DNA of 64,000 nucleotides, from the NCBI GenBank assembly GCA_036874045.1, contig CM072341.1, positions 14,024,501 through 14,088,500 of the forward strand, written 5' to 3'. This document shows positions 9,668-30,462 of the stretch, piece by piece. The position numbers and the translations under genes are program-made. This DNA comes from Cymodocea nodosa. Its lineage: Eukaryota; Streptophyta; Magnoliopsida; Alismatales; Cymodoceaceae. The notes under the pieces are model-generated. The model worked only from the letters and a program-made list of their open reading frames with translations, was not told the origin of the DNA and did no database searches. Numbering within the stretch: position 1 is the first letter of the stretch; every line of letters starts with the position of its first letter.

Positions 9668-10957
9668 TTACACATCACATAGCCTACAAATACCCAAATT
9701 TAATCTAATGTTGCAGAATGTATTTTCCTCTAAAGGTTTTGTAAATATATCGGCTAATTGATTTTTACTAGACACAAATTCTAATTTAATTTTTCCTTTA
9801 ATAACGTTATCTCTTAGAAAATGATGTCTAACCTCTATATGCTTTGCTCTTGAATGTAATATAGGATTTTTGGAAAGATTTATTGCAGAACTACTATCAT
9901 AATAAATCTCAGTTGTATCATAAGATAATCCAAAATCTTCTAAAGTTTTCCTTATCCACAAAATCTGAGTGCAACACAATGCAGCAACAACATATTCAAC
10001 TTCTGTAGTAGAAAGTGCTACACAGCTTTGCTTTTTACTAAACCATGACACCAAATTATTTCCCAATAATTGACATGTGCCACTGGTACTCTTTCTATCA
10101 AATTTAGATCCTACATAATCAACATCAGTATATCCTATAAGATCTATTGAACTCTCCTTAGAATAATACAGTCTGAAATTTTTAGTTTCTTGTATATATC
10201 TAAATATTCTTTTAACTACAATTAAGTGTGATTCTTTAGGATTAGATTGAAATCTAGCACAAACACACAACAAACATAATATTAGGTCTACTAGTAGTCA
10301 AATAAAGTAAAGAACCAATCATACTTCTGTATTTTCTTTGATCTATGGATTTTCCTATGTCATCAATATCTAACTTTAAAGAAGTACTCATAGGAGTTCC
10401 TCGAATCCTTGTATCATTAAAGTTAAATTTCTTAAGCATTTCATCTGCATATTTTTCCTGATTTAAAAATATACCTTTATCCATTTGCTTAATTTGAAGT
10501 CCTAGAAAATATGAAAGTTCTCCTATCATACTTATTTCAAACTAATTAGTCATCTCTTCAAAGAATATTTTTATCAACTTATCAGAGGTTGCTCCAAAGA
10601 TTATATCATCCACGTATATTTGAACAACAATTTGATCTTTACCATCTCTCTTAATAAATAGAGTATGATCCACTTTTCCCATGATATGGCCTTTTTCTAT
10701 TAAAAAAGTAGATAATCTTTCATACCATGATTTAGGTGCTTGCTTCAAACCATTTTACTTTTCAAAAACTTTTGTCTTAGATGCTAGAAAATATACCCAA
10801 GTGTATCTAGAGAAGTCATCTACTAAAACAAATACATATCGTTTACCACCAAGACTCATGATTCTTGTTGGTCCAAATAGATCCATATGTATAAGTTCTA
10901 AGACTCTCTTGCTTGAAATATTAGTTTTGGATTTAAAAGAGTTTTTATGAAGTTTAT
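9668..10957 (-). pseudogene. C0 pol remnant: RNase H, RT and a fused integrase piece
   Basis: RNase H (10273-9668) ends in the copia signature LADIFTKPLEENTF...ICRLCDV and has STTEVEYVVAAL. RT fragments at 10529-10254 and 10748-10542 include [22 protein letters not shown] and SWYERL. Upstream of codon GLKQAPKSWYERL the frame runs into integrase sequence (10755-10957, LGGKRYVFV-type, D1 region). Relative to B this is a deletion of about 1.3 kb, with ACCAT/CATTTT-type microhomology at the joint. Stops and shifts break the frame. It cannot be functional. Confidence 0.8.
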
Positions 10958-12969
10958 TGTTTGGGTTTTCCCAACACTACACTAGAAAAACTTGGATTTG
11001 TTACTTCTATTTTTACTTAGTTAATTTATCTTTACGCCTATTCTTTCTTTTAGAAGTAAACAAACAACCTTTAATACAATTTAGATATTAATTTTAATTT
11101 GTACTTTAACTGCAAGTGCATAGTGTCTATTGTATTAGTGTGCAAGTACAGGTCAATCTCACAAGGAATTGTTGACGAATTTAAGAAATGTTTGATTGTG
11201 AACAATTCAAATTTATATTCAATAAGTACTCCGTTGAGTTACAATTAACTCAACGGACTAAGTTCGTTGAGTTATGGCTAACTCAACGGACTATCCTCGT
11301 GGACTTAAGTTAACTTCACGAGCCTGTCTCTTCTTTATAATACTGCTATTTACAGAGGAATTTGGCCAACCATTGGGCGATTCCATAGATTGTAAATAAC
11401 ATCAATTAAGCTTTTTAATGCTAGTTAACATTGGATTTATCATTAAGCAATAATAACATTCAGATGATTCAAACAGTCACCATTAAAATCTTTAAGTTTT
11501 TTTGTACAAACCAATTTCAATAAACTGTAAAATTAAAACAAACATAAAACAATCATAAAACTGATACAGATAACATTAATCACGATACAACACAAACAAT
11601 ACAACACTCAAATACAACATACAAACAAAGATAAATTGTTTTTGGTATTTTTGTTTTGATGTGAACATGGAAATGGGCAAAAGGTGAAATGTAAAGTAAT
11701 TTCACTTGAGAGTAAATACTTCTGACACTACTTGCAACACGATTACACTATTGAAAATTAAACCACTTACAATTCTGTTTCCTCTCCCTATAGAATCGCG
11801 AGTCTAGAATTGCAAGATGATCTCCTCTTCAGCATACATGCATCAACTCGAAGCCAAGGCTAAAAGCTTTACGATCTTCTGAAATATGAGTCGACGCTTG
11901 GTGAAAATGTCTTCTCTTCCCGCGATGCGATCACTCCTCACAGTGGTTGTCAGGCACTGTGTTTGGCTCGAAATCAACCCGACATCAGGCAAGTATCCTC
12001 ACAGACCTCCAATGATTGGTGATTATGGTGGTGATACGATGGTTGGTGTGATACTTCGAAGAATCGCCAATACTGTCTGTAGAAAGCTCGGTGCTCCTCC
12101 TCTGTATACACTAGCTGTCCATCGATCATACTTTGTTCTTTTTTTCTTCTTTTCTTTTATATTTCTTCAATAGTAACTGCTTCTACTTGAATGATCGGTT
12201 GGATTTCCTTCCTTCAGATCAACGGTGATGCTTCCTTCTCCATTCGCGATTGAATTCCTGTGTGATACATGCAAACGTGGTTTTTCCTTCCAACTGTCTG
12301 TTCCTACAACCGCTACAGTGGCATTTTAGAAAATAACTATAAAATACATGCAATAAAGAAATAAGCCGCTAACCTAACGTGTTACCTTAGTATATATTCA
12401 TGTAACTCAATGCGTACAGTTATGCTAACTTAACGAGTTATAACTTAAGTAAATCTACTAGCTCTCGACACGTGTCAGCAGCAGTTTAAACATAAAATAA
12501 TATTTCGAAGAGTTACAGGTATAACTATCCGATGCTTAGATGCATTTTCGGATAGTAACAGCTATCTCACTGAAAATTCACTTAAGACATTCATTCTAGT
12601 TTCGACACGTGTACATCTGGAAATAATAAAATATTCTCTCTAAACATAACTATTCGGCAATTTAAACATAACTATCCGATACATATTCGGTCTATTAAAC
12701 ATAACTATCCAAATTTGTTTAGTATGTTAAACATAACTGTTTGAAATATCAAAAAATTCGGATACTTAAGAATTTCACAGCCTACAACTTACCGACAGTT
12801 CATAAATGTACTAAATAACATTAATTCCCCAAAATTAAACAGATTCTTCAATTAAAGCATATAACAGTGCAATTATAACATAATGACTTAATTCTCATAT
12901 GATAAGCTAAATATTATGCAATTAACCATCATTTAACCGTTAATAATATGCACTTTTTCATTCTAAACA
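10958..12969 (-). repeat. 3' LTR of E1
   Basis: Element-strand ends are TGTTTAGAATG (at 12969) and CCCAAACA (at 10958), giving a TG...CA LTR of about 2012 bp. It is longer than E2's 1822 bp, with several CGGATAGTTA-type repeats at 12500-12790. A TATAAAAG box lies at 12161-12154. Palindromic CGTTGAGTTA/TAACTCAACG hairpins lie at 11219-11330. The left boundary could be shifted by a few bases. Confidence 0.8.
11886..12173 (+). other. Antisense open frame in the E1 LTR (95 aa)
   Basis: Reads opposite to the element, starting MSRRLVKMSSLPAMRSLL and containing GKYPHRPPMIGDYGGDTMVG. The E2 LTR has the matching 113-residue frame at 16205-15864. I recognise no family. It could be a captured host-gene fragment or a chance open frame. 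Differences between the copies look like transitions (A/T, E/G, N/D, P/L), as expected of neutral deamination, so coding function is not supported. Confidence 0.3.
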
Positions 12970-12983
12970 CTTCCCCCATACCT
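12970..12983 (-). other. Polypurine tract of E1
   Basis: Element strand reads GGTATGGGGGAAG directly before the LTR TGTTTAG, identical in layout to E2 at 30198-30210. This is the primer site for plus-strand DNA synthesis. Confidence 0.75.
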
Positions 12984-13469
12984 AAATTTTGCTAGTCCCT
13001 TAGCAAACTAAGATCTAATTAATTGGTCTTTCAAAAAGTGCTAGAATTAATTCTTCCCCTTTTGTTTTTTTTCTTCTGTTTAGCATAAACATATATTCTG
13101 TATGTTTCAGTAATCAACCTGCAAAGATATTTAGAATATATGTAAATTACATACAAAGTATATCATCTTCATATAGGTGTTAATTATATTATCGTTTGTT
13201 CTTCTTTTCATCATCTGTAATCCTGAATTTTCCAATAAGTTTTCTAGAAGAAATTTCAACAACATACGAATCAAAGTACAATCCAATTCAATCTGATTAA
13301 GACAAGTAGAATAAAGAATTGTATTTCCATTAAACAACTTCAAAAGTCAATTCCTGATTTATATTTCAGCAATTCTAGATAACAGAAAATATACTTGATT
13401 CATAAGATATCTGTATTTCACAAAACACTTGTATCTTTTCAGAACAGTATATGTTTTTCTTTTTTTTTT

Positions 13470-14110
13470 GTACTTTAAAAGTTAATTTGACAAGCTTGAA
13501 TCATACAAGAGCTTTCTAATGTACCCATGTAACGAGCTTTCAATCAACAATCCCAGATCTGATTAGGATCTTAGGTTGCCAGATTTTTAGAGTCCTTTTT
13601 CAGGTCAACAATCCTTACATACCTATTTGCTCAAGTACAAAAGGCTCGTGATCAAACAAGTCAATAAACTCTCAAAGTTTTTTTTTTCTTTTTTTTTTTC
13701 TAAAAATAAATGCACACACAAAACAAAGCATTAATCACATACTGTATATGCACGTATTTCATTAATATAGATGTAGTAAAACACCAATCTCATATAATCC
13801 TGCTTCTATCATTTACTAAAAATATGAATCCATAACAATAAGCTCATACTTTATCTGTAGTTTAATAAGATCTACACATAAATCATTCTACAAGTTCAAT
13901 CAGTCAAAGTAAATGTATCTTTCATCATATGTGTTTCATTTAATCTAGAATTCACATCTGAGCTCCTTCAGGACTTCAGATAATTTTCTGATTAAGCATT
14001 AAATATTCTGATTTCATTTTAAAATCGTGAAACTGTTAAACTCATGAAATTCAGAAAAATCATAAGATACTATATCTAGATTTACATAAATAATAAATTC
14101 TATAGCATCT
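13470..14110 (-). repeat. Noncoding block shared with copia elements (E1 copy)
   Basis: Same ordered motifs as C0 and B (GAATCATACAAGAGCTTT, GGTTGCCAGATTTT, CTCAAGTACAAAAGGCTCGT). Here it sits between the F-box gene and the 3' LTR. It has no coding capacity. Confidence 0.8.
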
Positions 14111-14938
14111 TCTATAACCTTCTAAATATAACATTCAAGGAGTTTATAAAAATTTTACAGTCTCAATTATCGGATAGTTACAGCAAGTTCATAAAAATTT
14201 TCAATTTCCTTAAAACTTTGCAGTACCATTTTAATTCCTTTAATTGACAAACTTACATGGCTGTTACTTTAATTACCTCCCCCCCATACCTACATTTTGC
14301 ATTGTCCTTAATGTAAAAGATTTGACAATAAGTACAGTAATTGTAGCAGGCATGAATAAAGTTTTGTTTGATTTAAAATTCAGGATAAGTAATTGGTTAC
14401 ATACCTTGTTCCATTTGTATCTCTTTCTGCATATTCCGATTTTTGATTTTGAAAAATTTTTCATTCCCAGATAAATACTAAATATAAATAAAATAACATT
14501 TAACAGATATTAATAAATCAGTGTCTTGTGTGGAACCCAAGCTTCTATGCCTTTGGTGGCTCACAAGCAAGCCAGTTGGTTTCCGAGAACAAATACCAAC
14601 AAACTAGATTGATATTTTGTTTTGTTTTTGTTTTTTTTTTATAAAATGAACATAAAAAACTTCAAAATTCCTTTCTTTTTTTTTCTAAAAATAAATGCAG
14701 AATACACACGTTAAACACACAAAATCACAGCTTAAGAACATGATTGAAAAGTAGAAACAAATGGAATAAATGTATCAGTCCAAGTAAACTTTTTAGGCAT
14801 AGTTTTTCTTGCTATTAATTCTGTTTTAATGCAGTTCTTGTTCCTTTTTAATTTGTAAACATGCAATATATTATAAATTCCAAATACGAGTGTATTACCA
14901 TTAATGATATGTAATGCAGAAAGGGATCTTTTTTGGTT
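14111..14938 (-). other. E1 noncoding 3' region with Athila-type purine motif
   Basis: The element strand contains ACAATGCAAAATG then TAGGTATGGGGGG (about 14274-14312). In E2 the same place reads CATTGAGGACAATG followed by the purine run, typical of the 3' noncoding part of Athila-type elements. Short frames here (14244-14474 on both strands) are not genes. Confidence 0.55.
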
Positions 14939-15271
14939 CTAGGGTAATGTAGCAGTTTCTATTTCTACCTCTATTTCAATATACTCCTCTTCCCACTTCC
15001 ATTCATTCATGTCTTCCATAATCCATATTTGAAATTTCATCAGTTCATCCCACCATCTTATCAGACATAAAGTAGGATCATCTTCTTCATTATACCACAT
15101 TCCTATTTGAATTTCATTAAATTCTGCAGATGGTGGTTTAGCTATTTCACTCGGTACAGGTAAAATTTCTATATAATCATCATAACTGTCTATGCTCACT
15201 ATATATAAATCAGATCCATATGCTAATGATATCTCCGTGACTAAATAGATATATCCATCAAGTATGACATG
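14939..15271 (-). pseudogene. C-terminal fragment of E1 F-box gene
   Basis: Encodes the last 110 or so residues of the E2-type F-box protein, from THVILDG to the final IETATLP. It includes WYNEEDD, LIRWWDELMKFQIWIMEDM and the acidic tail. The last 86 residues differ from E2 at roughly ten positions and contain no stop. The gene is cut at 15271, where E2's LTR starts. This shows the F-box gene was already a component of the family before E2 inserted. Confidence 0.85.
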
Positions 15272-15863
15272 TGTTTAGAATGAAAAAGTGCATATTATTA
15301 ACGGTTAAATGATGATTAATTGCATATTATTTAGCTTATCATATGAGAATTAAGCTATTATGTTATAATTGCACTGTTATATGCTTTAATTGAAGAATCT
15401 GCTTAATTTTGGGGAATTAATGTTAATTTAGTATATTTATGAACTATCGGTAAATTGCAGGCTGTGAAATTCTTAAGTATCCGAAAATGCATCTGAGCAT
15501 CGGATAGTTATACCTGTAACACTCCGGAATGTTATTTTATGTTTAAACTGCTACTGACATGTGTTGAGAGCTGGTAGATTTACTTACGTTATAACTCGTT
15601 AAGTTAGTATAACTGCACGCATTGAGTTACATGAAAATACACTAAGGCAATGTGTTAGGTTAGCGTTATAAACTTAAGTTGTTATTTTTGCACGTGTTTT
15701 ATAGTTAATTCAACGAAGGAAGTCCGTTGAGTTATTTGTAACTCCATGGACTATATATTTTCTAATATGCCACTGTAGCGGTTGTAGGAACAGACAGTTG
15801 GAAGGAGAAACCACGTTTGCACGTATCACGTAGGAATTCAATCGCGTAGGGAGAAAGAAATCA

Positions 15864-16205
15864 TCACCGTTGATCTAAAGGAAGGAAATCCAACCGACCA
15901 TTCAAGCAGAACCAGTTACCACTGAAGAAATATAAAAGGAAAGAAGAAAAAAAGAAAGAGTGTGATCGATGGACGGCCAATGTATACAGAGGAGGAGCAC
16001 TGAGCTTTCTGTAGATAGTATCAGCGATTCTCCGAAGTATCACACCAACCATCGTATCACCACCATAATCACCAATCATCAGAGGTCTGTGAGGATACTT
16101 GCCTGATGTCGGGTCGATTCCGAGCCAAACACAGTGCTTGACAACCACTGTGAGGAGTGATCGCGTCGCGGGAAGGGAAGACATTTTCACCAAGCGCCGA
16201 CTCAT
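15864..16205 (-). other. Antisense open frame in the E2 LTR (113 aa)
   Basis: Counterpart of the frame in the E1 LTR. It runs antisense across the TATA box and presumed transcription start of E2. The first 80 residues are largely conserved between the copies, then they diverge in a Phe/Ser-rich tail. No family recognised. It may simply be an open frame within a conserved LTR. Confidence 0.3.
15931..15938 (+). promoter_or_regulatory. TATA box of E2 LTR
   Basis: TATAAAAG, also conserved in the E1 LTR (12161-12154). It lies in the middle of the LTR, where the U3/R border is expected. Confidence 0.6.
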
Positions 16206-16761
16206 ATTTCAGGAGATCGTAAAGCTTTTAGCCTTGGCTTCGGGTTGATGCCTGTATGCTGAAGAGGAGATCATCTTGCAATTTTGAACTGGCGATTCTA
16301 TAGGAAGAGGAGATAGAATTGTAAGTGGTTCAATTTTCAGTGGTGTAATCGGGTTGCAAGTAGTGTCGGAAGTATTTATTGTCAAGTGAAATTACTTTAC
16401 ATTTCACCTTTCGCCCATCACATCAAAACAAAAATACCAAAAACAATTTATCTTTGTTTGTATGTTGTATTTGAGTGTTGTATTGTTTGTGTTGTATCAT
16501 GATTAATGTTATCTGTATCAATTTTATGATTGTTTTATGTTAGTTTTAATTTTACAGTTTACTGAAATTGGTTCGTACAAAACAACTTAAAGATTTTAAT
16601 GGTTACTGTTTGAATCATCTGAATGTTAGTATTGCATAATGATAAATCCAATGTTAACTAGCATTAAAAAAAGCTTAATTGATGTTATTTACAATTTGTG
16701 GAATCGCCCAATGGTTGGCCGAATTCCTTTGGAATTAGCAGTATTATAAAGAAGAGACAGG

Positions 16762-16822
16762 CTCGTGGAGTTAACTTAAGTCCACGAGGATAGTTCGTTG
16801 AGTTAACTGTAACTCAACGGAG
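16762..16822 (+). promoter_or_regulatory. Inverted-repeat hairpins in the E2 5' leader
   Basis: Two consecutive palindromes: CTCGTGGA...TCCACGAG, and CGTTGAGTTA-ACTG-TAACTCAACG. They would be in the transcript upstream of the first ORF. The same hairpin precedes ORF X, gag and the F-box gene. Confidence 0.7.
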
Positions 16823-17100
16823 TGCTTATTGAATATAAATTTGAATTATTCACAATCAAACATTTTTTAAATTCATTAGCAATTCCCTATGGGATCGACC
16901 TGTACTTATACACTGATACAATAGACACTATGCACTTGCAGTTAAAGTACAAATTAGAATTAATGTTTAAATTGTATTAAAGGTTGTTTGTTTACTTCTA
17001 AAAGAAAGAATAGGCATAAAGATAAATTAACTAAGTAAAAATAGAAGTAACAAATCCAAGTTTTTCTAGTGTAGTGTTGGGAAAACACAAACAAGTTTTA

Positions 17101-17118
17101 TGGCGCCATTGCCGGGGA
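17101..17118 (+). other. Primer-binding site of E2
   Basis: TGGCGCCATTGCCGGGG, seven bases after the LTR end. The TGGCGCC start is the usual tRNA primer site of Athila/Tat-type gypsy elements. Confidence 0.8.
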
Positions 17119-17222
17119 ATTGAATTGAATTGAATTGAACTAAATTGAATAGATATAAGCAACTGTTAGAGCTGTTTCATTTTAATAGTCAGAGTTGTGT
17201 GTTTTCTTCTGTAATTGAGAAT

Positions 17223-18149
17223 ATGGCATATGCTTATGCTCAAAGATTTCTGAAACCTTTAATTAGCATATGTGAATTCTGTAATTCTGAAGGACATGAC
17301 ATTTATGATTGTTTGAAATTGAGACATTTACAGATTGATAGATCTCATGAACAAGAAATGAATTATCCTCAATATAATAGAGCCGAGTATGAGAATCCTA
17401 TAGTTTACCTAACTGATGGTCAGTATAGAATGTCTAATATGATGAGAGACATTGAAGTTTGGGATAGCTATGACAGACTAGAGCATAGTATAGAGCAAAA
17501 TCTAGACAAACTGGAATACTTTGTGTGTCAACAACAAGAAGTCAACCAATTAAACTATGAGGCATATTCAGAACCTAAACAAGATATAATTTACGAAACT
17601 GAAAAAGTCATAAAGAAAATTGATCAAAAATTGAATGCAATGAAATTAGATGATCTAGAAACAAAATTAAAAGCATTAGACAAGAATGCAATGAAAATAC
17701 AAGTTTTGCAACAGGATAATGAAAATTGTAATGTTATAAACCTACACAACTTGTAAAATATACAACAAACAGAAAACACAAATGTAAGAGAATTTAAAGA
17801 ATGCACTTTAAAACTAAAAACAATTGAAGATCATAATCACGAAAATGATATACAAAAACATCATGAAAGTAACAAAAATCTAGAAGATGTATGTGTAACA
17901 TTAAGATTTGGAACTGATATACCACCAAGAACTCAAAATGAAAATGATATGAAGGTGGACAAGAGTAAAAATCAAAATGATAATGAAAATGTAATAGCTG
18001 AAAATCTAGAAATCACTGAAGAACAATCTGAATCTGCAATTGAAGCTAAAAATAATCAAACAAATCAACTGAAAGAAAAAGAGTCTTTGAAATCAAAATC
18101 TTTAGCACCCTATCCTGAAAGATTACAACAAATAATTCCTGAAAAATAA
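17223..18149 (+). pseudogene. E2 first ORF: zinc-knuckle (nucleocapsid-like) protein
   Basis: From ATG 17223 a CX2CX4HX4C zinc knuckle lies at residues 17-30 (CEFCNSEGHDIYDC), typical of gag nucleocapsid. A Gln/Asn/Glu-rich, probably coiled-coil region follows. The capsid part normally expected before the knuckle is absent and is found at 25722-27065 instead. A TAA at 17754-17756 ends the first segment (203 residues counted from a non-ATG codon at 17145). Lys/Glu-rich sequence continues to another stop near 18147 and leads into the protease. A longer frame starting at 17145 without ATG exists. Confidence 0.7.
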
Positions 18150-18194
18150 GAAAAAATAAGAGAAATTTTTGAAAAAGTACAAGTTAACATTCCT

Positions 18195-18902
18195 TTGTTA
18201 GATCTATTGCAGAATATGCCACCTTGTGCTAAATTTCTGAAGGATTGGTGTACTAAGAAAAGAGAGCGAAAAGTTCTTAGAAAGGTTTTTTTAGCTGAGC
18301 AAAGTAGTTACCTATTTCTGCCACAAATTCCTAAAAAGTTATCTGATCTTGGAATCCCTGTTATATCATGCACCATAGGAAATATCATTCTAGAAAGAAC
18401 CTTAATAGACTTAGGTGCAGGTATATATGTTATGCCAAGTGATATATTTGCATCCTTAGGATTAGAAGGCTTAACTCCTACTAGTACGGTTATTCAATTG
18501 GCTGATAGAAGTATAAGATACCCTAGTGGAAAAATAGAGGATGTCTTAATTAAAATCAAGAATTTTATATATCCTATTGATATTGTAATTTTGGATTCCC
18601 AACAAATTAAGCATAAAAATAGTGATACATCTTTAATTTTGGGAAGGCCATTTTTAGCAACATCAGGGGCTGTTATAAATTGTAAAACTGGAGTAATGAA
18701 ATTAGCATATGGTAATGAGGATACTCAATTAAATATTTTCAAACCAGAAAAGTTTGAGGAGTTAGAAATGTCCTTACATACCATAGACTTTTTAGAGGAT
18801 GAAGGAGATTTGTTAGATGATGTGATTCAAGAAGAATTAAATAGGCAAATCAATTTTGAAACTTTAGAAGAAAGTGAAAGCATAAATATAGAAGGAGATT
18901 AG
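18195..18902 (+). pseudogene. E2 aspartic protease domain (pol)
   Basis: Shows LLDLLQNMPPCAKFLKDW, then IPKKLSDLG...PVISCTIGN, the active-site DLGAG (usually DLGAS) within LIDLGAGIYVMP, QLADRSIRYPSGKIEDVLI and LGRPFLATSGAVI. These are standard Athila-type protease landmarks. The frame is joined upstream through a TAA and downstream through a TAG at about 18900, so the gag-pol reading is interrupted. Confidence 0.85.
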
Positions 18903-19049
18903 GAAGAAATTAATTTAAAAAATGATGATGTTCAATTAGGAGCTCTAGCTTCTGATGGGCAGCATTTAGAATTAAAACATTTACCTCCTGAATTAACCTA
19001 TATATTTCTAGAAGATAAACAGACCTGTCCAATCATTATTGCTTCAGAT

Positions 19050-20567
19050 TTGAAAGAGGATCAAATAGCTAAATTAAAAGAGGCAATAAAAAGTTATAAA
19101 GAAGCAATAGGATGGACTATGACTGATATAAAAGGGTTAAGTTCAACTTTATGCTGTCACCACATATATTTAGAAGAGAATGCTAAACCTGTTAGAATTC
19201 CTGAGAGGAGATTAAATCCAAACCTTAAGGAAGTAGTCAAGAAGGAAATAGTTAAATGGTTAGATAATGATATAATATATTCGATTTTTGATAGCTCGTG
19301 GGTTAGTCCAATCCATGTAGTTCCAAAGAAATCAGGATTAACAGTTATTAGGAATGAAAGTCAAGACTTGATACCTACTAGAATTCAATCAGGCTGGAGA
19401 GTATGTATAGACTATAGAAAGCTGAATGCTGTGACTAGGAAAGATCATTTTCCCTTACCTTTTATAGATCAAATGCTAGAAAGATTAGCAGGGCAAGAAT
19501 ATTTTTGTTTCCTAGACGGGTATTTAGGGTATAATCAAATTCCAATAGCATTAGAGGATCAAGAGAAAATAACGTTCACCTGTCCTAATGAAACTTATGC
19601 TTTTAAAAGAATGCCATTCGGATTATGCAATGCACCAGCTACCTTTGAAAGGTGTGTGCAGGGCATATTTACTAGAATGACTGATGAAGTTTTAGAAATA
19701 TTTATGGATGATTTTACTGTATATGGAAACTCATATGAAGTGTGTTTAAGCAATTTAGACCAAATATTAAAACGCTGTGTGGAAAAAAATCTGGTTTTAA
19801 ATTGGGAAAGATGTCACTTCATGGTTAAACAAGGAATAGTCTTAGGGCATGTTGTTTCTAAAAAAGGGTTGGAAGTAGATAAAGCTAAAATAGAAGTAAT
19901 TTCTAATCTACCAGAACTTAAATCAGTAAAGAATATTAGATCATTTCTAGGACATGCTGGTTTTTATAAAAGATTTATTAAAGACTTTAGCAAGATAGCT
20001 AGACCTTTAACTAATCTATTAAAAGATGTTCCATTTAACTTTGATAAAAATTGCAAGGAAGCATTTTTTAGACTTAAGACTAGCTTAATTTCAACTCCTA
20101 TAATTCAAGCACCTAATTGGAACCATCTATTTGAATTAATGTGCGATGCTTCTGATTTTGCTGTAGGAGCAGTGTTAGGACAGAAAATAGAAAAATCTCC
20201 TAGAGTGATTCATTATGCAAGCAAAACCTTAAATGATGCTCAAGTTAATTACACAACTACTGAAAAAGAATTATTAGCTGTTGTGTTTACTTTAGAAAAG
20301 TTTAGATCATATTTGATTGGAGCTAAAGTAATAGTATACACGAATTATTCAGCTCTAAAACAACTAATAAAGAAAAAAGAAACTAAACCTAAATTGATCC
20401 GATGGATATTATTATTGCAAGAATTCGATCTAGAAATTAAAGATAAAAAAGGTTGTGAGAATGTAGTAGCAGATCATTTATCAAGATTACAAATAGAAAA
20501 ATCAAATATTGAAATTAAGGATAATTTTCCTGATGAACAATTAATGACCATCAACACAATGCCTTAG
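19050..20567 (+). pseudogene. E2 reverse transcriptase and RNase H (pol)
   Basis: RT motifs: [62 protein letters not shown] and FMDDFTVYG; the catalytic aspartates are present. RNase H follows with [15 protein letters not shown] and [11 protein letters not shown]. The usual YTDHSALK reads YTNYSALK, so a conserved Asp is Asn and RNase H is probably impaired. The frame ends in TAG at 20565, where the family usually has Trp before Y-A (TGG to TAG). Integrase continues in the same frame. Confidence 0.9.
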
Positions 20568-21866
20568 TATGCACACATAGTTAATTACTTAGTTACTAGT
20601 TTAACACCTAAGGATTGGAATAGACAGGATAAGAAATTGTTTTTCTCAAGAGTAAAATATTACTATTGGGAAGACCCTTACTTATTTAAGAAATGTCCTG
20701 ATCTGGTTTTAAGGAGGTGTGTTCCAGAAACTGAATATTCGAGCATATTGTCTTTCTGTCTTGACCAAGCTTGTGGAGGACATTTTGGTTCAGGGAAAAC
20801 TGCTGCAAAAATTCTGCAATGTGGGTTTTATTGGCCAACACTATTCAAAGATGCTCATAAATATTGCTTAAGTTGTTTAAGATGTCAACAAATAGGAAGA
20901 ATATCAAAGAGGAATATGATATCTCTTAATCCTATTGTTGAGGTTGAAATCTTTGATGTGTGGGGAATAGATTTTATGGGTCCATTTCCTATATCTAATC
21001 AATTTAATTACATATTGTTGGGAGTGGATTATGTATCTAAATGGATAGAAGCTATTCCTACAAAAACTAACGATAACAAAGTGGTAATACAATTTATAAG
21101 AACAAATATATTTGCCAGATTTGGAATACCTAAAGCTATTATCAGTGATAGAGGAACTCATTTCTGTAATAGAAGTTTTGAAGCCTTAATGAAGAAATAT
21201 GGAGTAAACCACAAAATTGCAACATCATATCATCTACAAACAAGTGGACAAGTAGAAAGTGCAAACAAACAAATTAAATTAATCTTGAAAAAAGTAGTAA
21301 ATCCTACTAGAACAGATTGGGCTAATAGATTGATTGATGCACTTTGGGCTTATAGAACTGCTTATAAAACGAGCTTAGGTATGTCACCTTTTAGGCTAGT
21401 ATATGGAAAAAGTTGTCATTTACCTGCTGAAATAGAACATAAAGCTTATTGGGCATTAAAAACTCTAAACACTAATTTAAATCAAGCTGCTGAAAATAGG
21501 AAAATGCAACTAATTGAATTAGAAGAATTTAGAAATGAAGCTTATTCAAAGACTGTAAGAGAAAAAGAGAAAATTAAATTCTGGCATGATAGAAAAATTA
21601 TTCCTAAAAACTTTGAAATAGGACAAGAAGTATATCTTTATATGGCTAGACTCCATAACCATCTAGGAAAATTAAGATCTAGATGGGCAGGACCTTACAT
21701 AGTTCGAAATGTTTATCCTTATGGAGCTATTGAAATTGAAAATCCTAAAAATCAGAATATATCTAAAGTAAATGGACAAAGACTTAAACCTATTCTGAAA
21801 ACACCAAAAAGCTCCTTTGGAATTATAGAAGAAATCAGAGTAGAAGACTACTCGAGTTTTACTTAG
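20568..21866 (+). pseudogene. E2 integrase (pol C-terminal part)
   Basis: Open for 409 codons from about 20637. N-terminal zinc region [14 protein letters not shown]...CLSCLRCQQ; the first His of HHCC is not obvious. Core: [12 protein letters not shown] (D), [10 protein letters not shown] (D) and SGQVESANK (E), which fits the DDE triad. A C-terminal SH3-like region ([12 protein letters not shown]) ends at SSFT. It inserts element DNA into the genome. Only the RNase H/integrase junction stop separates it from RT; the domain itself has no stop. Confidence 0.9.
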
Positions 21867-22215
21867 TGAGAAATCAGTTTTTATGTTTATATATATACAA
21901 TTAAAAAAAAAAAAACATTAAAAATATATATATAACATAAAAATAGTTGTAGTTCAACCGACTAGATCCACTGATATGGCTGGAAAATTAAAAAATATTT
22001 AGGTCTGACCGAAGCGTAGCATCGGTATGACCGAAAGATTAAAAAAAATATTGGTTTTACCGAAGCATAGTATCGGTTAAACCAGAAAAAAATTGTATAT
22101 TAATTTTCAGAAAAAATTTTGTTTTACCGAAACATAGTATCGGTTCAACCGAAGAAAGATAAAAAAAAATAAAATAAAAAAATTTAGGTCTGACCGAAGC
22201 ATAGTATCGGTTAAA
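21867..22215 (+). repeat. Tandem hairpin array downstream of E2 integrase
   Basis: After an A-rich stretch, four spaced units resemble ACCGAAGCATAGTATCGGT, each an imperfect palindrome (ACCGA...TCGGT) at about 22005-22035, 22057-22085, 22116-22152 and 22192-22216. Poly-A spacers separate them. Confidence 0.75.
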
Positions 22216-22539
22216 CCTGTAAAAAAAAAAGAAAAACTATTCTCTGTAATATTTTTATTATTATATTTGCTTGTACGGGGAGTCCGTTGAGTCACGCTTA
22301 ACTCAACGAGCTTACTCTATTGAGTCTTGAGTTAGTCAACGAGTTAACACAACGGAGTACTGTAGCTAAGACCGCGGATAAAATAGTAATAGTTGGTTAG
22401 GGAAATGACCCGATTACCCGCCTAAACTTAGTGCTTATTTAAACTAAAACCTAGGGTTTTGGGGGCATTATCCGACAAATCATTTAGAATCTAGAATAGT
22501 AGAAATTAGAGCGATTACGTGCTGTTGTGTAACTCCACG
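22216..22539 (+). promoter_or_regulatory. Leader of E2 ORF X: hairpin, telo-box, TATA-like site
   Basis: CCGTTGAGT/ACTCAACG inverted repeat at 22284-22309 and a further one to 22360. TTATTTAAAC at about 22434-22443 is followed by AACCTAGGGTTTT (telo-box-like, about 22448-22460), about 100 nt before the ATG at 22540. C0 ORF X has a similar arrangement. It may drive separate expression; this is inferred. Confidence 0.4.
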
Positions 22540-24762
22540 ATGATGAAGATGACGCTTGAATTCTGGGAAGATGTTGTTGATACATCAGAATTTCTGAATG
22601 AATCAGAAGAGTGGCACATGCGGCAGAAGATCAGAAATACGACAAGAGGGAAAGAGCTACAGAAGGTAGAATCAGAACTTTTCAAGTTGAGAAGAGATTT
22701 AGTAGATATGGATATACGAATACCTCAAATGATGGAAACACGAATTAGAGTGGCAATTGAAATTGCAGTAAGTAAAGAAAGACAAATAAGGCCAAGTAAC
22801 GAAGTTGCCCTAGAATTAATCCAACGTAAGCCCCGACTCTGGTTCAAGAGACGAATCTGTAGACAAGCTAAACGGGTGATCTGGGAGCAAGAAAGGAAAG
22901 CAAATGAAGAGACAACTGAAGAACGGGAGGAACCAACTACTAAAAGACCTGTTCCTGAGGAGCAGCAGTCTAGACCTTCAGTTCCACCATTTAAGCCATT
23001 GGCACGAGCAGAAATGATGGGGCCTTCGATTGAAGAAGAAATAAGAGAATTTGCAGAAGTGGTTCAAGTTGGAAAAAACCAAGGAGAATCAGAAGACTTG
23101 GCAGTGGCTAAAGCACACCTGGTGTTTGATGCACTGTACAAAAAGAGGGCTGCAGAAAAGTTGAAAGCCCAATATAAAATCAAAGTGGAACAGCATCACG
23201 CAGCTACTGCCAGAACTGTTGCCAAACCTACTGCAAAAGGAGATGAAGCTGGTCCTTCGAGATCAACAATTAAAGTTAAACAAGAAGAGCCGGTACCTAT
23301 GGCTCGAACGCCTGCAGAACCTATTTTTATAGATTTAATTTCAGAAGATGAAGAGGAAGAACAAGCATAACTAATCAGAAAAAAGAAAGGAAAAGAAAAA
23401 GTGTATGAATATGAGGAAATTAAATCTGAAGTACTAATTTTTACAGGGCCTGTGGAGCAGATTTTTATCAACCTGCTATCCGAATCTGAGGAGGAGCAGG
23501 AGGAGCAAAGAAAAGAAAAAAATCAAGCTGAAATTAGTTTGCAACCTATACAAGAAGAAACAGAAATTAGGGTAGAAACTGAATTGCCCGTGACTCCATC
23601 CCAATCTGTTACAGAATCAGAAAGAACAGTAATAGAATAGATTGGTAGTTAGGAGGAAGAAGAAAGAGTAGAAAATGAAGAGGCTGAAAGAAGCCATTTG
23701 GACAAAAATAATTTCATAGATTCCATTGAAGAGCAAGAAACTCTTCAGCAAATTATGGAAAGAATTCAAGACAGAGTGGAGAGTTCTGCTGGCTCACCAC
23801 CACAAACAGAAGCAAAAGCAAAAATTCAGGAATTTGAAGAGAATGTCCAAATGCAGCCTATGCTGGAGGAAGAGCAAGAGCGAACCCCTCTAGAGCAACA
23901 AAGTCACCTTCCTGACCCGACTGAAACAACAATTTTGAATGAAGTACATTTTTGTAGTCAGGAAGCTTATATCAAATACCAAGAAATAAAGGGTTACGAT
24001 ATTATTTACAGTAGACCAGTAAATTGGGATGGAATGCAAGAAATCAAAGATCTATTTGAATTCCAAAGTCTACTGCAATTTATATCTCAAGATAGAGGGC
24101 ATGCAGTATATGAAAATTTAGTGCCCTGTTTCTATGCAAATTTAAGAGAAGGAGAAGGAGAATTAATTTCAAACGTGGAGGAAGCTGATGTACAGATAAC
24201 ACCAGAGCTTCTCCACAACATATTTGGTTTAAGGAATGAAGGAACAAAAATTTTGGAGGATACAACTGCAGTTGAATGGACTGAGCAGCAAATTAAGGAT
24301 TGTTTAGCTATCAATCCTGGTGTGCCATTATTAAATAGATTGAAGCATTTAAATGGAAAAGCACACATGGTAGCTAACATTCTGATTAAGAATGTCTATC
24401 AACGATAGGGCCATGACATAGAATTAAGTCAATTTGTCAAATGGGCCACGTATGCAGTTGTAAATAAGATCAAAATAAATTGGTATGTGGTTTTTATCTC
24501 TAAGCTGAAAACAGTAAAGAAGAAATTATTTTATGAAGATTTGATTTCACTATTGATGGTGGATAGTATTGATTTCACTAAATGGACATCAAAAAGGATA
24601 AGATCTAAAACCATTTCAGTGAAAGAATACAGAAATTTTGTAGGTGCAAAACTAGCAGTACCTTCTAGAGGAATTACAAGAGCTGTAGAGAGGATTAATC
24701 AATTAGAACTTCAATTAGAAAAACTCCAGAAGGAAGTAGATGAACTTAGGCATAGAGATTAA
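22540..24762 (+). pseudogene. E2 accessory ORF X (plant-transposon-associated domain, SIM-like motifs)
   Basis: About 740 codons from ATG 22540. The N-terminal third is charged (WHMRQKIRNTTRGKEL, LWFKRRICRQAKR). The middle has two acidic motifs, EPIFIDLISEDEEEE (23317-23361) and EQIFINLLSESEEE (23455-23497), resembling SUMO-interacting motifs. The C-terminal domain (about 23940-24500) has VHFCSQEA, IKDLFEFQSLLQFI, CFYANLR, ITPELLHNIFGLRNEG, LNGKAHMVANIL and YQR*GHDIEL. It aligns with ORF X in copia C0, B and A. A leucine-rich coiled coil (LELQLEKLQKEVDELR) ends it. Stops at 23368, 23638, 23650 and 24406 break it. Function unknown. Confidence 0.75.
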
Positions 24763-25195
24763 ATTGTATTGTTCGTCTACTTGTGTAAAATTATATGAAA
24801 TTGTATGATGTACTTGTATTGTAATTGATTCATATTAATGAATGTAAATTTTTCAGATGCAATTTTCATACGTGTTTTGAATGTGAAATGAATGGAAATT
24901 ATTGAATATTATGTTATTGTGAAACTTTATGAATGAATATGTAACAGATTTACAATTTGCTGAATGACAGGATAACTGCTTAAAAATTTCTACATGTTAT
25001 AAGGTAAAATGTAAATTCTACATAACATAAAATGACCTGCAATTTAAATCTTTATATAATGTTCAGATTTAAATGTATTTTAATCAAAATGAGGAATTAA
25101 TGACATAGATTTAACTTTATTACAGTTAGCAAAATGACAAAGAAAAAAAGAAAAAAAAAGAACAGAATAGAAAACTTACGAGAGTGAAACTTAGA
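24763..25195 (+). other. E2 noncoding spacer after ORF X
   Basis: Very AT-rich with many ATG/TGAAT-type repeats and no coding domain. It could hold the ORF X polyadenylation region. Nothing else seen. Confidence 0.5.
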
Positions 25196-25721
25196 AGTTG
25201 CCAAGTGTTAACTCAACGAACTTAGTCTGTTGAGTTAACCGTAACTCCACGAGGTCAGTAATATAATATAAGGTTACTCCGTTGAGTTATCTGTAACTCA
25301 ACGAAGTTAGTCCGTGGAGTTAGCAACAGTAGCCGACTGTGTTCTGTTGAGTAATCTGTAACTCAATGAGGTTAGTTTATGGATTAAGCAGAACGGTTAT
25401 TCTTTTAATCACAAACGAAACTTCGTCGGTTTAGCAATTACCAAAATTTGAAATTAGTAGTGGTACACGTATCCATTAAAACAGGAACCACGATGCACGT
25501 TGCAAGAACGTGTCTTGCAACGAGATTTATTCACTTTATGGATGCGCAGTATATATATGAAATAGAATGTTATTTACGAGTTACCAGCACTTTTAAGAGA
25601 AAGGAGAAAGCATTGGAGGAACTGGAAGGAGAAGCAGCTGATTCAACCTTCATCCGACAATAAATATTTATAGAATGGAAAGCTTCAGACTAGTATGTAA
25701 TTAATCTTCTGTTATTTATTT
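25196..25721 (+). promoter_or_regulatory. Leader of the E2 downstream gag: three inverted repeats
   Basis: TTAACTCAACG...TGTTGAGTTAA (25208-25238), CCGTTGAGTTA-TCTG-TAACTCAACG (25279-25303) and a decayed third copy (about 25345-25373). TATATATATG at 25549-25558 is TATA-like, about 170 nt before the gag ATG. A short open frame at 25448-25663 has no recognised match. Confidence 0.5.
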
Positions 25722-27065
25722 ATGAGCACATGGACTCGTTCTCTAAGCACTAAACGATTAGTAAGAACACCTATCCAGGAATTTTCATTGCAAAGGGGTA
25801 CTGAAAAATTTTCTGAACTGAACTTTAACGAAATTCTTTGGGGTGTAGCTAACCTTTCTTTAAAAGAGAACGTAGAGATGGCTGCTCTAGTAGAAAAACC
25901 ATTAGGAGAGATTCTGTATCTTGAATTAATTGATGAACCTTCATGTATTCGATTGCCAAACTTTGAGGGAGATAGGTTTGAACTAAAATCTAATTATATT
26001 AGTCAATTGCCACATTTTCATGGATTAGAAAGAGAGGATGCCTATTATTTCCTTAGAGAATTTAACAAAGTTTGTCAAATGATGAGAATGCCGAACATGA
26101 GTATAGATGCTATTAAACTTAGATATATCCCTTTTGCTTTAAAAGATAAAGCTAAGAGATGGTTATATACTCTATCGCCTGATTCAATTTCTACATGGAC
26201 TGAATTTTACTCTATTTTTTTGGAAAAATACTATCCAACACATCAAACGATTAAAAAGAAGAAAGAAATATTAATGTGTAGCCAAAAATAGGGTGAATCA
26301 TTCTGGAAATATTTTGAAAGATTTAAAGATTTACTGACTCAATGTCCACATCATGCAATGAGTAAAGCACAATTAATAGGAATAATTTATGAAGGCATAG
26401 ATGTTTCAACGAAATCTTTATTAGAATCTACTTGTCAAAATGGATTTTTAAAATTATGTAGTGAAGAAGCATGGGCATATTTAGAAAATTTTGCAAAAAG
26501 AACTGCATAGTGGGAAAATTCGGCTGAAGCTATTGCAGATAAAAGATTATTGCCAAAAGGAATGCATGAAATAGATTCCAATACTATGCTTGAGGTGAAA
26601 TTAAATGAATTAACAAAGAAAATAGAAGAGTTATCATTAAATCAAAAGCTAGCAGAAAAGAATATAAACATAAATGACTTAGATATTATTTATGCTAGAA
26701 ACCAGAGAGATAACTTGGGAAATTATTATAATCCTAATTGGAGAAATCACCCGAATTTATCTTGGAGAAACAACAATTTCCAGGGAGGAGAAAATATAAA
26801 TGAGAAGAACATAAGTTATGAAGTATTAATTGAACAAGGAGCTAGAATAGAGAAATTAGAAAAGATAATCCAACAAGTAAATAATCATCTAGAATTTATA
26901 TTTGGAAATGCTGTAAATCAAAATTAGAATAGAAATATACCACTTAGATAGAAGGAACCAATGGAAGTTAGACCTACTGGAGGATTGCCAATACAAGCTA
27001 TACCTAATCCTGTCAATAGAACGGTTAATGAAATTGATACCTCTTCTGGGAGGGCAGCTGAATGA
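25722..27065 (+). pseudogene. E2 capsid-type gag located downstream of pol
   Basis: Athila-type retrotransposon gag: FELKSNYISQLPHFHGLE, YYFLREFNKVCQMM, LRYIPFALKDKAKRWLYTL, WTEFYSIFLEKYYP, then GESFWKYFERFKDLLTQCPHH, LIGIIYEGID, EEAWAYLENFAKR and YYNPNWRNHPNLSWRNN. It ends in a coiled-coil-like IEKLEKIIQQV segment. There is no zinc knuckle; that lies in the 5' ORF at 17223. TAG stops at 26289, 26508, 26925 and 26949 break the frame, some where family members have Gln. In ordinary elements this domain precedes protease. No LTR or element boundary was seen between integrase and this ORF, and the F-box gene follows it. Confidence 0.85.
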
Positions 27066-27127
27066 AGCAGCATATCTGAAGCAACTATCTATATGTATAT
27101 ATGTTTTTATTTTTATTTTAAGTTAAT

Positions 27128-27260
27128 AGTATCGTAGAGTTAATTTTTAACTCAACGAACTTAGTCCGTTGAGTTATGCCTTGACTCCACGAGGGTGTGC
27201 AGTAGTTATGTTAATTTTTGTCTCTACTAAATTTTTGTTTTTATTTTACAGAATCGATAA
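27128..27260 (+). promoter_or_regulatory. Leader of the E2 F-box gene: hairpin and 3' splice-site-like sequence
   Basis: TAACTCAACG (27148-27157) and CGTTGAGTTA (27167-27176) form an inverted repeat. A T-rich tract ends in TTTTACAG at 27244-27251, ten bases before the ATG, which looks like a plant splice acceptor. This would allow expression from a spliced subgenomic RNA; inference only. Confidence 0.45.
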
Positions 27261-28193
27261 ATGGAATTAATGCAATTACCGTTGGATGCACAAAGGAAAA
27301 TACTAAGTAACTTGTCAGCTAAAGATCTGTGTAGGATGTGTTGTGTATCAAAGGAAATTAAAGACTGTATTGAAGAAGAATATTTTCAGGGACTACAAGC
27401 TGCAAAAATGACTAAGATTAGAGATGGATTCATATGGAGGTCATTTAATCGTAGTTCAAATACCCATGAATATCTAGCTATGGAAGAAACTACTAGAATT
27501 CCAACTAATGCATTAGAAGGAATGAGTCATATTATTGGGATAGATGAAGGATTAATCATATACAAGACGAGACCAAGGTATGCAAGTTTATCATTACTTG
27601 AGATTTTGATAAGAAATCCTATAACAGGAGAAGAATGTAATATAGGAAGACCTACTATATTTGAAGCACCAATTGAAAATTGTGGGTCAGCTTTAATATT
27701 TTCTGATAAAAATTCTGCAATTCCTGAAAAATTATATTATTGGAGACCTACAGGAAATTGGGGTGAAGATTTACGCTTAAGTGTGTATAATTTTCTGAAC
27801 AGATCTTGGAATGAAAACATTATAATATATCTAGGACAGAAATCATTAATTAACCAAACACATGTCATACTTGATGGTTATATTTATTTAGTCATGAAGA
27901 TATCAATAGCATATAGATCTGATTTATACATAGTGAGCATAGACAGTTATGATGATTATACAGAAATTTTACCTATACCGAGTGAAATAGCTAAACCACC
28001 ATCTGAAAAATTTAATAAAATTCAAATAGGAATGTGGTATAATGAAGAAGATGATCTTACTTTATGTCTGATAAGATGGTGGGATGAACTGATGAAATTT
28101 CAAATATGGATTATGGAAGACATGAATGAATGGAAGTGGGAAGAAGAATATATTGAAATAGATGTAGAAATAGAAACTACTACATTACCCTAG
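27261..28193 (+). CDS. F-box protein (FBA-like) carried by retrotransposon E2
   Basis: Intact 310-residue frame. The N-terminal F-box at about residues 5-45 (LPLDAQRKILSNL, AKDLCRMCCVSKEIKD) matches the family's LP...IL..L..KDL.R...VSK pattern. The F-box would bind SKP1 in an SCF ubiquitin ligase. The rest resembles plant F-box-associated domains: an IRNPITGEE segment, LYYWRPTG, and LTLCLIRWWDELMKFQIWIMED (compare the usual L.L..W...EIW.M). A Glu-rich tail ends the protein. It has no premature stop although gag, RT and ORF X nearby do. E1 carries the same C-terminus at the same distance from its LTR, so the gene is part of the family rather than a host neighbour. The target is unknown. It may be captured from a host F-box gene. 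Confidence 0.8.
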   Translation: MELMQLPLDAQRKILSNLSAKDLCRMCCVSKEIKDCIEEEYFQGLQAAKMTKIRDGFIWRSFNRSSNTHEYLAMEETTRIPTNALEGMSHIIGIDEGLIIYKTRPRYASLSLLEILIRNPITGEECNIGRPTIFEAPIENCGSALIFSDKNSAIPEKLYYWRPTGNWGEDLRLSVYNFLNRSWNENIIIYLGQKSLINQTHVILDGYIYLVMKISIAYRSDLYIVSIDSYDDYTEILPIPSEIAKPPSEKFNKIQIGMWYNEEDDLTLCLIRWWDELMKFQIWIMEDMNEWKWEEEYIEIDVEIETTTLP

Positions 28194-28999
28194 AACCAAA
28201 AAGGATCCCTTTCTACATTACATATCATTAATGGTAATACACTCATATTTGGAATTTATAATATATTTCATGTTTACAAATTAAAAAGGACCAAGAACTG
28301 CATTAAAACAGAATTAATAGCAAGAAGAACTATGCCTAAAAAGTTTGCTTGGATTGATACATTTATTCCATTTGTTTCTACTTTTCAATCATGTTCTTAA
28401 GCTGTGATTTTGTGTGTTTAATGTTGTCTATTCTGCATTTATTTTTATTTTTTTTTTAAAAAAAGAATTTCGAAGTTTTTCATGTTCATTTTATAAAAAA
28501 AACAAAAAAAACAAACAAAACAAAATATCAATCCAGTTTGTTGGTATCTGTTCTAGGAAATCAACTGGCTTGCTTGTGAGCCACCAAAGGCATAGAAGCC
28601 TGGGTTCCACACAAGACACTGATTTATTAATACCTATTAAATGTTATTTTGTTTAATATACTATGTTTATCTGGGAATGAAAAGTTTTTCAGAATCAAAA
28701 ATCGGAATATGTAGAAAGAGATACAAATGGAACAAGGTATGTAACCAATTACTTATCTTGAATTTTAAATCAAACAAAACTTTATTCATGCCTGCTACAA
28801 TTACTGTACTTATTGTCAAATCTTTTACATTGAGGACAATGCAAAATGTAGGTATGGGGGGGAGGTAATTAAAGTAACAGCCATGCAAGTTTGTTAATTA
28901 AAGGAATTAAAATGGTACTACAAAGTTTTGAGGAAATTGAAAAATTTTATGAACTTGCTGTAACTATCCGATAATTGAGAATGTAAAATTTTTATAAAC
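28194..28999 (+). other. E2 3' noncoding region with Athila-type purine motif
   Basis: ACATTGAGGACAATG at about 28828-28842 followed by TAGGTATGGGGGGG at 28850-28864 is a common 3' signature of Athila-type elements. The short open frames here are not supported as genes. A-rich and T-rich runs occupy 28436-28525. Confidence 0.6.
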
Positions 29000-29690
29000 T
29001 ACTTGAATGTTATATTTAGAAGGCTATAGAAGATGCTATAGAATTTATTATTTATGTAAATCTAGATATAGTATCTTATGATTTTTCTGAATTTGATGAG
29101 TTTAACAGTTTCATGATTTTAAAATGAAATCAGAATATTTAATGCTTAATCAGAAAATTATCTGAAGTCCTGAAGGAGCTGAGATTTGAATTCTAGATTA
29201 AATGAAACACATATGATGAAAGAAACATTTACTTTGACTGATTGAACTTGTAGAATGATTTTTGTGTAGATCTTATTAAACTACAGATAAAGTATGAACT
29301 TATTGTTATGGATTCATATCTTTAGTAAATGATAGAAGCAGGATTATATGAGATTGGTGTTTTACTGCATCTGTATTAATGAAATACATGCATATACAGT
29401 ATGTGATTAATGCTTTGTTTTGTGTGTGCATTTATTTTTAGAAAAAGAAGAAGAAGAAAAAAAAAAAAACCTTGAGAGTTTATTGACTTGTTTGATCACG
29501 AGCCTTTTGTACTTGAGCAGATAGGTATGTAAGAATTGTTGACCTGAAAAAGGACTCTAAAAATCTGGCAACCTAAGATCTTGATCAGATCTGGGATTGC
29601 TGATTGAAAGCTCGTTACATGGGTACATTAGAAAGCTCTTGCATGATTCAAGCTTGTCAAATTAACTTTTAAAGTACACAAAAAAAGAAA
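29000..29690 (+). repeat. Noncoding block shared with copia elements (E2 copy)
   Basis: Element-strand order here includes ACGAGCCTTTTGTACTTGAG, ATCTGGCAACCTAAGATC, AAAGCTCTTGCATGATTCAA. It is the reverse complement of the block in C0, B and E1, as expected because E2 lies on the other strand. It is followed by about 500 bp of element-specific DNA before the polypurine tract. Confidence 0.8.
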
Positions 29691-30197
29691 AAGAAAACAT
29701 ATACTTTTCTGAAAAGATACAAGTGTTTTGTGAAATACAGATATCTTATGAATCGAGTATATTTTCTGTTATCTAGAATTGCTAAAATATGAATCTGGAA
29801 TTGACTTTTGAAGGTGTTTAATGGAAATACAATTCTTTATTCTACTTGTCTTAATCAGATTGAATTGGATTGTACTTTGATTCGTATGTTGTTGAAATTT
29901 CTTCTAGAAAACTTATTGAAAAATTCAGGATTACAGATGATGAAAAGAAGAACAAACGATAATATAATTAACTCCTATATGAAGATGATATACTTTGTAT
30001 GTAATTTACATATATTCTAAATATCTTTGCAGGATGATTACTGAAACATACAGAATATATGTTTATGCTGAACAGAAAAAAAAAAAAAAAAAAAAAGGGG
30101 GAGAATTAATTCTAGCACTTTTTGGAGAATTAATTCTAGCACTTTTTGAAAGACCAATTAATTAAATCTTAGTTTACTAAGGGACTAGCAAAATTTA

Positions 30198-30462
30198 GGT
30201 ATGGGGGAAGTGTTTAGAATGAAAAAGTGCATATTATTAACGGTTAAATGATGGTTAATTGCATAATATTTAGCTTATCATATGAGAATTAAGCTATTAT
30301 GTTATAATTGCACTGTTATATGCTTTAATTGAAGAATCTGCTTAATTTTAGGGAATTAATGTTAATTTAGTACATTTATGAACTATCGGTAAATTACAGG
30401 TTGTGAAATTCTTAAGTATTCGAAAATGCATCTGAGCATCGGATAGTTATACCTGAGCATCG
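30198..30462 (+). repeat. E2 polypurine tract and truncated 3' LTR
   Basis: GGTATGGGGGAAG is followed by TGTTTAGAATG at 30211. The LTR matches the 5' LTR for about 245 bases and then breaks at 30455-30466, where a short piece (CTGAGCATCGGATAG) is duplicated. The next bases belong to a copia element. The duplicated filler suggests end-joining. Confidence 0.8.

What the first reader, a model, noticed from the sequence alone, without database searches (positions are those of the whole stretch)
15272..30462. Gypsy retrotransposon with capsid gag moved downstream of pol
E2 reads LTR, zinc-knuckle ORF, protease, RT-RNase H, integrase, ORF X, then an Athila-type capsid gag (25722-27065), F-box gene and LTR. 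Known Athila/Tat elements have capsid, then knuckle, then protease. Here the knuckle stays in front (17223) and the capsid, which has no knuckle, follows pol. I see no LTR, primer site or target duplication between them that would indicate two nested elements. If it is a family trait, gag and pol expression must be decoupled, which would solve the usual problem of making more Gag than Pol.
Basis: partly seen in the sequence, partly recalled or inferred. Interest (0 to 1): 0.88.

Follow-up and report, generated by a model that had tools for sequence, protein, structure and literature searches.

The report
Retrotransposon lineage with Gag after Pol
In this plant genome a large family of jumping genes, and divergent relatives of it, carry their shell-protein gene after the enzyme genes instead of before them, an order I did not find described, which would force the shell and the enzymes to be made as separate products.

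Summary
Confirmed as a family trait. 15272-30455 is an Athila-type Ty3/gypsy element ordered: LTR, PBS, knuckle-first Pol ORF without capsid, ORFX, stand-alone capsid Gag without knuckle, F-box, PPT, LTR. The window's own genome yielded 150 scored capsid and 150 scored knuckle-region copies (capped). Among these, 38 pairs, the window's included, have the knuckle upstream of the capsid on one strand within 20 kb (34 at 8.0-9.2 kb); one pair is reversed, at 17 kb. All 30 knuckle loci read follow an LTR end; none shows this family's capsid upstream. Three of 8 copies probed at both ends have perfect 5-bp target duplications. Nesting is thus excluded. In 6 of 6 divergent loci, gag (37-41% identical) lies downstream of integrase and keeps a knuckle. 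A canonical Gag-protease query scored 67 gags, none running into protease. Likely history: gag moved behind pol, Pol kept a knuckle, this family's Gag lost its own. Separate Gag and Pol products follow from the order; an internal promoter is my inference, untested. The F-box is an orphan, found in one of the six divergent loci. New variant of a known kind.

The parts
15272..17093 (+). 5' LTR, 1822 bp, TGTTTAG...AAACA
   Evidence: 93.2% identical to the minus-strand copy's LTR; ends just before the PBS
17101..17118 (+). primer binding site TGGCGCCATTGCCGGGGA (tRNA-Asp type; that name is recalled)
   Evidence: only match in the window at up to 3 mismatches
17139..21866 (+). ORF1: knuckle + linker + protease + RT/RNase H + integrase, no capsid; first Met 17223; 4 in-frame stops in this copy
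   Evidence: aligns collinearly with canonical gag from the knuckle on
17271..17312 (+). zinc knuckle CX2CX4HX4C near the N-terminus of ORF1
   Evidence: present in 29 of 30 knuckle loci, the window's included
21867..22518 (+). spacer with palindromic half-sites (22285-22354), tandem repeat (21991-22236), TATA-like TATTTAA at 22436
22519..24762 (+). ORFX (position of the Athila env-like ORF); 4 in-frame stops; weak PF20167
24763..25721 (+). spacer before gag: 7 half-sites at 25209-25368, TATA-like at 25550
25722..27065 (+). stand-alone gag: native gag start, capsid, NPNWRNHPNLSWR, linker, stop TGA; knuckle missing; 4 in-frame stops in this copy
27066..27260 (+). spacer with 3 half-sites and an acceptor-like T-rich stretch ending CAG at 27251
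27261..28193 (+). F-box ORF, 310 aa, open
   Evidence: PF00646 E 9.8e-10; at least 500 bp of F-box downstream of gag in 25 of 30 loci
28194..30210 (+). long 3' noncoding region ending in the PPT-like GGTATGGGGGAAG
30211..30455 (+). 3' LTR, first 245 bp only; 97.1% identical to the 5' LTR, K2P 0.029
10957..15271 (-). 3' end of a second family copy (F-box C-terminus, noncoding, PPT, 2013-bp LTR) into which this element inserted

Best explanation
It is a lineage of Athila-type Ty3/gypsy retrotransposons in which Gag has become a separate gene 3' of pol. SHOWN: the order is shared by many copies, lies within target-duplicated units, and Gag downstream of integrase recurs in divergent families of the same genome; Pol starts with its own zinc knuckle; gag has its own conserved start and stop; this family's Gag lacks a knuckle. 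INFERRED: genomic RNA from the LTR is translated into the knuckle-Pol polyprotein, while Gag is translated from a separate shorter RNA started at an internal promoter just upstream of gag. Pol is no longer a Gag fusion, so it is brought into the particle by binding the genomic RNA through its N-terminal knuckle, much as foamy virus Pol is packaged through RNA. The Gag:Pol ratio is then set by transcription rather than by frameshift, readthrough or splicing.
For: Order: 38 same-strand pairs against 1 reversed, chance about 0.6; 15 of 20 upstream probes show LTR end, leader and knuckle ORF at the expected place; 30 of 30 knuckle loci lie just after an LTR end; TSDs CGTAT, GAGAC, GTAGT in 3 of 8 copies. 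Relatives: 6 of 6 loci; integrase followed at once by a capsid start in a further family, whose ORF1 also starts with a knuckle. Derived state: capsid precedes protease in 33 of 33, and RT in 9 of 9, of the fetched database proteins with usable matches to both; E2 capsid groups with P0002 and P0003, E2 protease with P0002. Constraint between copies, dN/dS: knuckle region 0.28, protease 0.67, ORFX end 0.43, gag 0.55, F-box 0.75, bootstrap ranges all below 1. Promoter idea: half-sites CGTTGAGTTA 81 in the window against 3.3 expected, in this element confined to the LTR, the three spacers and one at the ORFX start; acceptor-like sites within 120 nt of the gag start are poor (best rank 112 of 377), one before the F-box ranks 2 of 377.
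Against: No RNA or protein data. Half-sites are not better conserved than their surroundings, and the ORFX upstream region does not align with that of two Copia ORFX elements beyond chance, so the promoter is unproven. In the further family gag starts so close to the integrase end that an internal promoter would lie inside pol. RNA packaging with a knuckle-less Gag is unexplained. Knuckle-first ORF1 in the family of L104 rests on one probe that did not reach protease; the matching probe for L099 showed nothing. 3 of the 6 copies with both LTR ends had no matching target duplication. RT and integrase were not read in the three copies with target duplications. All samples are best-scoring, not random.
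Confidence: 0.72

Rival explanations
1. Same architecture, but Gag is expressed from a spliced subgenomic RNA (env-like), or by reinitiation after pol, rather than from an internal promoter.
For: Spliced RNA reported for barley Bagy2 (PMC7264820) and spliced Gag-only RNA in BARE (abstract); gag starts almost on the integrase end in a relative; a strong acceptor-like site precedes the F-box.
Against: Poor acceptor-like sites within 120 nt of the gag start; about 3.9 kb including ORFX lie between pol and gag here.
Confidence: 0.3
2. The downstream capsid is a captured passenger; working Gag is supplied in trans by canonical Athila elements.
For: This family's Gag lacks a knuckle; of 29 other sampled gag copies 26 carry at least one in-frame stop and 3 are truncated.
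Against: A canonical Gag-protease query gave 67 scored gags (of 12,201 first-look candidates), none reaching protease; gag dN/dS 0.55; frames as long as the whole gag are open in some copies; Gag downstream also in divergent relatives.
Confidence: 0.1
3. Two nested or recombined elements seen as one.
For: The locus is a nest of insertions.
Against: Same order in many copies at near-constant spacing, target duplications at the ends of three copies, no inner PBS, LTR start or PPT.
Confidence: 0.02

Closest known systems
Athila/Calypso/Diaspora lineage of plant Ty3/gypsy (PMC1142308, passages read)
   Same: RT 67% and 66% identical to the capsid-first database proteins P0138 and P0126, CX2CX4HX4C knuckle, aspartic protease, extra ORF after pol, no second RNase H or chromodomain matched
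   Different: Diaspora is a single gag-pol ORF with the zinc finger in gag; capsid precedes protease in 33 of 33 database proteins. Here capsid follows integrase and a knuckle stays with Pol
Foamy viruses (PMC7828637, passages read)
   Same: Pol not made as a Gag fusion; genomic RNA acts as scaffold for Pol packaging; an internal promoter exists
   Different: Foamy Pol comes from a spliced RNA, and gag precedes pol (recalled); no sequence relation tested
BARE and Ty1/Copia shGAG (PMC3735527 abstract; PMC8892269 passages)
   Same: A separate Gag RNA gives excess Gag
   Different: BARE has one ORF and its Gag RNA is made by splicing; EVD shGAG is made by splicing with early polyadenylation
Plant elements with extra ORFs between pol and 3' LTR (PMC7264820, part 1 of 3 read)
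   Same: ORFX and F-box lie there, in sense
   Different: The part read describes env-like and antisense ORFs and transduced genes, not capsid gag

Membership tests
LTR retrotransposon (Ty3/gypsy) | two LTRs, PBS, PPT, target duplication | tested here: met
   TSD in 3 of 8 other copies; this copy's 3' flank is lost
Ty3/gypsy | order PR-RT-RH-INT | tested here: met
Athila lineage | pol similarity to Athila-type proteins | tested here: met
   RT 65-67% to P0138, P0126, P0131; these carry no lineage label, the lineage name is inferred
Athila lineage | no additional RNase H, no chromodomain | tested here: inconclusive
   no such Pfam match; absence by Pfam only
Athila lineage | gag-pol in one ORF, capsid first | tested here: not met
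   so: Athila-related pol with another gene order
Foamy-like strategy | Pol made apart from Gag | tested here: met
   separate ORFs by sequence; products not seen
Foamy-like strategy | separate RNA, RNA-mediated Pol packaging | not testable with these tools
   needs RNA and particles
PF20167 plant transposon protein (ORFX) | match above the curated cut-off | tested here: not met
   18.2 bits against 45, E 0.0025, on the second half; not listed at E <= 0.5 for the whole ORF

The most novel reading that the evidence does not exclude
A whole clade of plant retroelements has cut the Gag-Pol link: Gag is a 3' gene with its own promoter, Pol keeps a zinc knuckle as its tether to the genomic RNA, and in the most abundant family seen Gag has given up its knuckle, so RNA selection is done by Pol. 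This would be an independent plant counterpart of the foamy-virus strategy, with an F-box protein as a further accessory gene.
Probability: 0.4. Interest if true: 0.92.

Novelty: new variant of a known kind. Interest (0 to 1): 0.83.

Why it matters
Gag-before-Pol, with Pol as a rare extension of Gag, is treated as the ground plan of LTR retroelements. A many-copy lineage that breaks it shows the linkage can be given up, and makes two old questions testable: how the Gag:Pol ratio is set, and how Pol is packaged when it is not a Gag fusion. It also matters for annotation: pipelines that expect Gag first could call these elements gag-less, non-autonomous or nested.

Tried and rejected
Nested insertion: rejected. 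LTR remnants in the spacers: with strict gaps, the matches above controls were confined to the short palindromic motif; a looser run gave raised scores before gag (523 against 390, sd 25) and before the F-box (194 against 156, sd 12.5) that vanished when the motif was masked. Programmed stop readthrough: stops differ between copies, so decay is enough. F-box homologs in the protein database: none at E 0.001. F-box fold: single-sequence model, mean pLDDT 33.5, not usable. Knuckle region outside this genome: 25 hits, matching on the protease side as far as checked, and no hit for residues 29-330 among the fetched proteins. IMG/VR: no confirmed relative. Site-level constraint on the promoter motif: not found. 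First ORFX dN/dS was in the wrong frame and is replaced. Capsid and protease scores of database proteins do not correlate significantly (Spearman 0.18, P 0.33, n 33). Literature: searches listed no paper that I recognised as describing this order; apart from listings I saw only the papers named, to the extent named, and passages of PMC11963269.

Full report
WHAT IS THERE. The 5' LTR runs 15272-17093 and is followed by a PBS at 17101. One frame, 17139-21866, encodes a zinc knuckle, protease, RT-RNase H and integrase; no capsid precedes the knuckle. Then come ORFX (22519-24762), a capsid gag (25722-27065) and an F-box ORF (27261-28193), 2 kb of noncoding DNA, a PPT and a 3' LTR cut after 245 bp. 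The element lies inside the F-box of a minus-strand copy whose 3' end and LTR occupy 10957-15271.

WHAT THE TWO GAG PIECES ARE. The start of ORF1 aligns collinearly with canonical Athila-type gag from the knuckle to protease. The downstream gag aligns from the native gag start through capsid and the NPNWRNHPNLSWR block to the end of the gag linker, with a gap at the knuckle. So one piece is gag without capsid, the other gag without knuckle. In trees of 34 rows the capsid groups with P0002 and P0003 (100/100) and the protease with P0002 (92/83, below the starred level); E2 is a long branch in both, so its place is unsure. Capsid and pol thus seem to come from one lineage. Capsid comes first in 33 of 33 fetched database proteins with usable matches to capsid and protease, and in 9 of 9 with capsid and RT.

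FAMILY TRAIT. The own-genome search with the first 189 residues of the capsid scored 150 copies at 92-100% identity, the window's included (5996 first-look candidates); the knuckle region scored 150 (5572 candidates). Both lists are capped. Pairing them gave 38 same-strand pairs with the knuckle ORF upstream within 20 kb, the window's included, 34 of them at 8.0-9.2 kb and the others at 1.6, 3.1, 4.9 and 7.0 kb; one pair in reverse order at 17.4 kb; three on opposite strands. In 30 of 30 capsid loci (one is the window) the spacer and at least 58 bp of ORFX lie upstream; 25 of 30 have 500 bp or more of F-box downstream; none has a knuckle in any frame. The five without are L003, L015, L016, L027 and L029. 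Of 20 probes upstream of the best 20 other copies, 15 hit LTR end, leader and knuckle ORF on the right strand; five (L032, L039, L040, L045, L049) hit something else. In 30 of 30 knuckle loci (one is the window) an LTR end lies just upstream, the knuckle is intact in 29, and DNA of this family's gag appears in 2, both times downstream. Of 8 copies probed at both ends, 6 gave both LTR ends and 3 of these a perfect 5-bp duplication; the other 3 had unlike flanks. In the three, knuckle region, ORFX end, gag and F-box were read; RT and integrase were not.

CONSTRAINT. Among copies dN/dS is 0.28 (knuckle region, 29 copies), 0.67 (protease, 27), 0.43 (ORFX end, 26), 0.55 (gag, 26), 0.75 (F-box N-terminus, 24), all with bootstrap ranges below 1. 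The gag start codon is kept in 25 of 26 copies and the stop codon in 25 of 26. Each of these 26 gags carries at least one in-frame stop, but some other copies have open frames as long as the gene. Stop counts in the window copy fit neutral decay since insertion for the four ORFs, gag being the worst fit.

OLDER THAN THE FAMILY. At C15:3200000-3207300 a relative with ORF1 50-64% identical starts with a knuckle, has no capsid detected in the 2.7 kb before it, and has a capsid start directly after integrase, soon truncated. A canonical Gag-protease protein as query gave 67 scored gags, all ending at query residue 417-443, none entering protease. The six loci fetched from that search all show integrase, then gag with its own knuckle, on one strand; in L099 an F-box 32% identical follows. 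One probe upstream of L104 shows a knuckle at the start of an open frame with no capsid found before it in about 1 kb, without reaching protease; the probe for L099 showed neither. Reading: gag moved behind pol before these families split, Pol kept a knuckle, and the window's family lost the second one in Gag.

HOW IT MAY WORK. The palindromic half-site CGTTGAGTTA (one mismatch allowed) occurs 81 times in the window against a control mean of 3.3, maximum 6; within the element it is found in the LTR and in the three spacers before ORFX, gag and F-box, with one site at the ORFX start, and none in ORF1, gag, F-box or the 3' noncoding part. TATA-like words follow it in the first two spacers, in AT-rich DNA where such words are common. 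This suggests internal promoters. Against it: the sites are not better conserved than their neighbours. A good acceptor-like site precedes the F-box but not gag. The knuckle on Pol would serve as RNA tether; this is inference by analogy with foamy virus Pol.

LIMITS.

Noticed in passing
34659-47165 (minus): A Ty1/copia element with 1.6-1.7 kb LTRs and target duplication GTACT carries an ORFX relative (30% aa) between pol and its 3' LTR, so the extra ORF is shared across superfamilies.
   Followed up: partly
29210-30033: About 800 bp of the gypsy element's 3' noncoding region is 70-71% identical to the stretch between pol and ORFX of two Copia elements in the window, ending at an acceptor-like AG. 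Looks like exchange between superfamilies.
   Followed up: partly
15592-15696: A 94-107 bp block of the gypsy LTR is 79-86% identical to the Copia LTRs in the window, and 15336-15484 resembles 50362-50502.
   Followed up: no
window, 81 sites: Palindromic half-site CGTTGAGTTA is enriched about 25-fold, mostly in LTRs of both superfamilies.
   Followed up: partly
L079 (C1:5439120-5441250 region): Deletion derivative joining the start of protease to the spacer before gag: LTR, knuckle, spacer, gag.
   Followed up: no
L027, L029: Copies in which LTR sequence follows the gag-F-box spacer and the F-box is missing.
   Followed up: no
26253-26359 (minus): Sub-threshold Rfam match to plant snoR71 antisense to gag (36.1 bits, cut-off 40).
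   Followed up: no
1375-2769 (minus): Open frame with a weak Pollen Ole e 1 match (21.4 bits, cut-off 23) and a long proline-rich repeat; perhaps a host gene.
   Followed up: no
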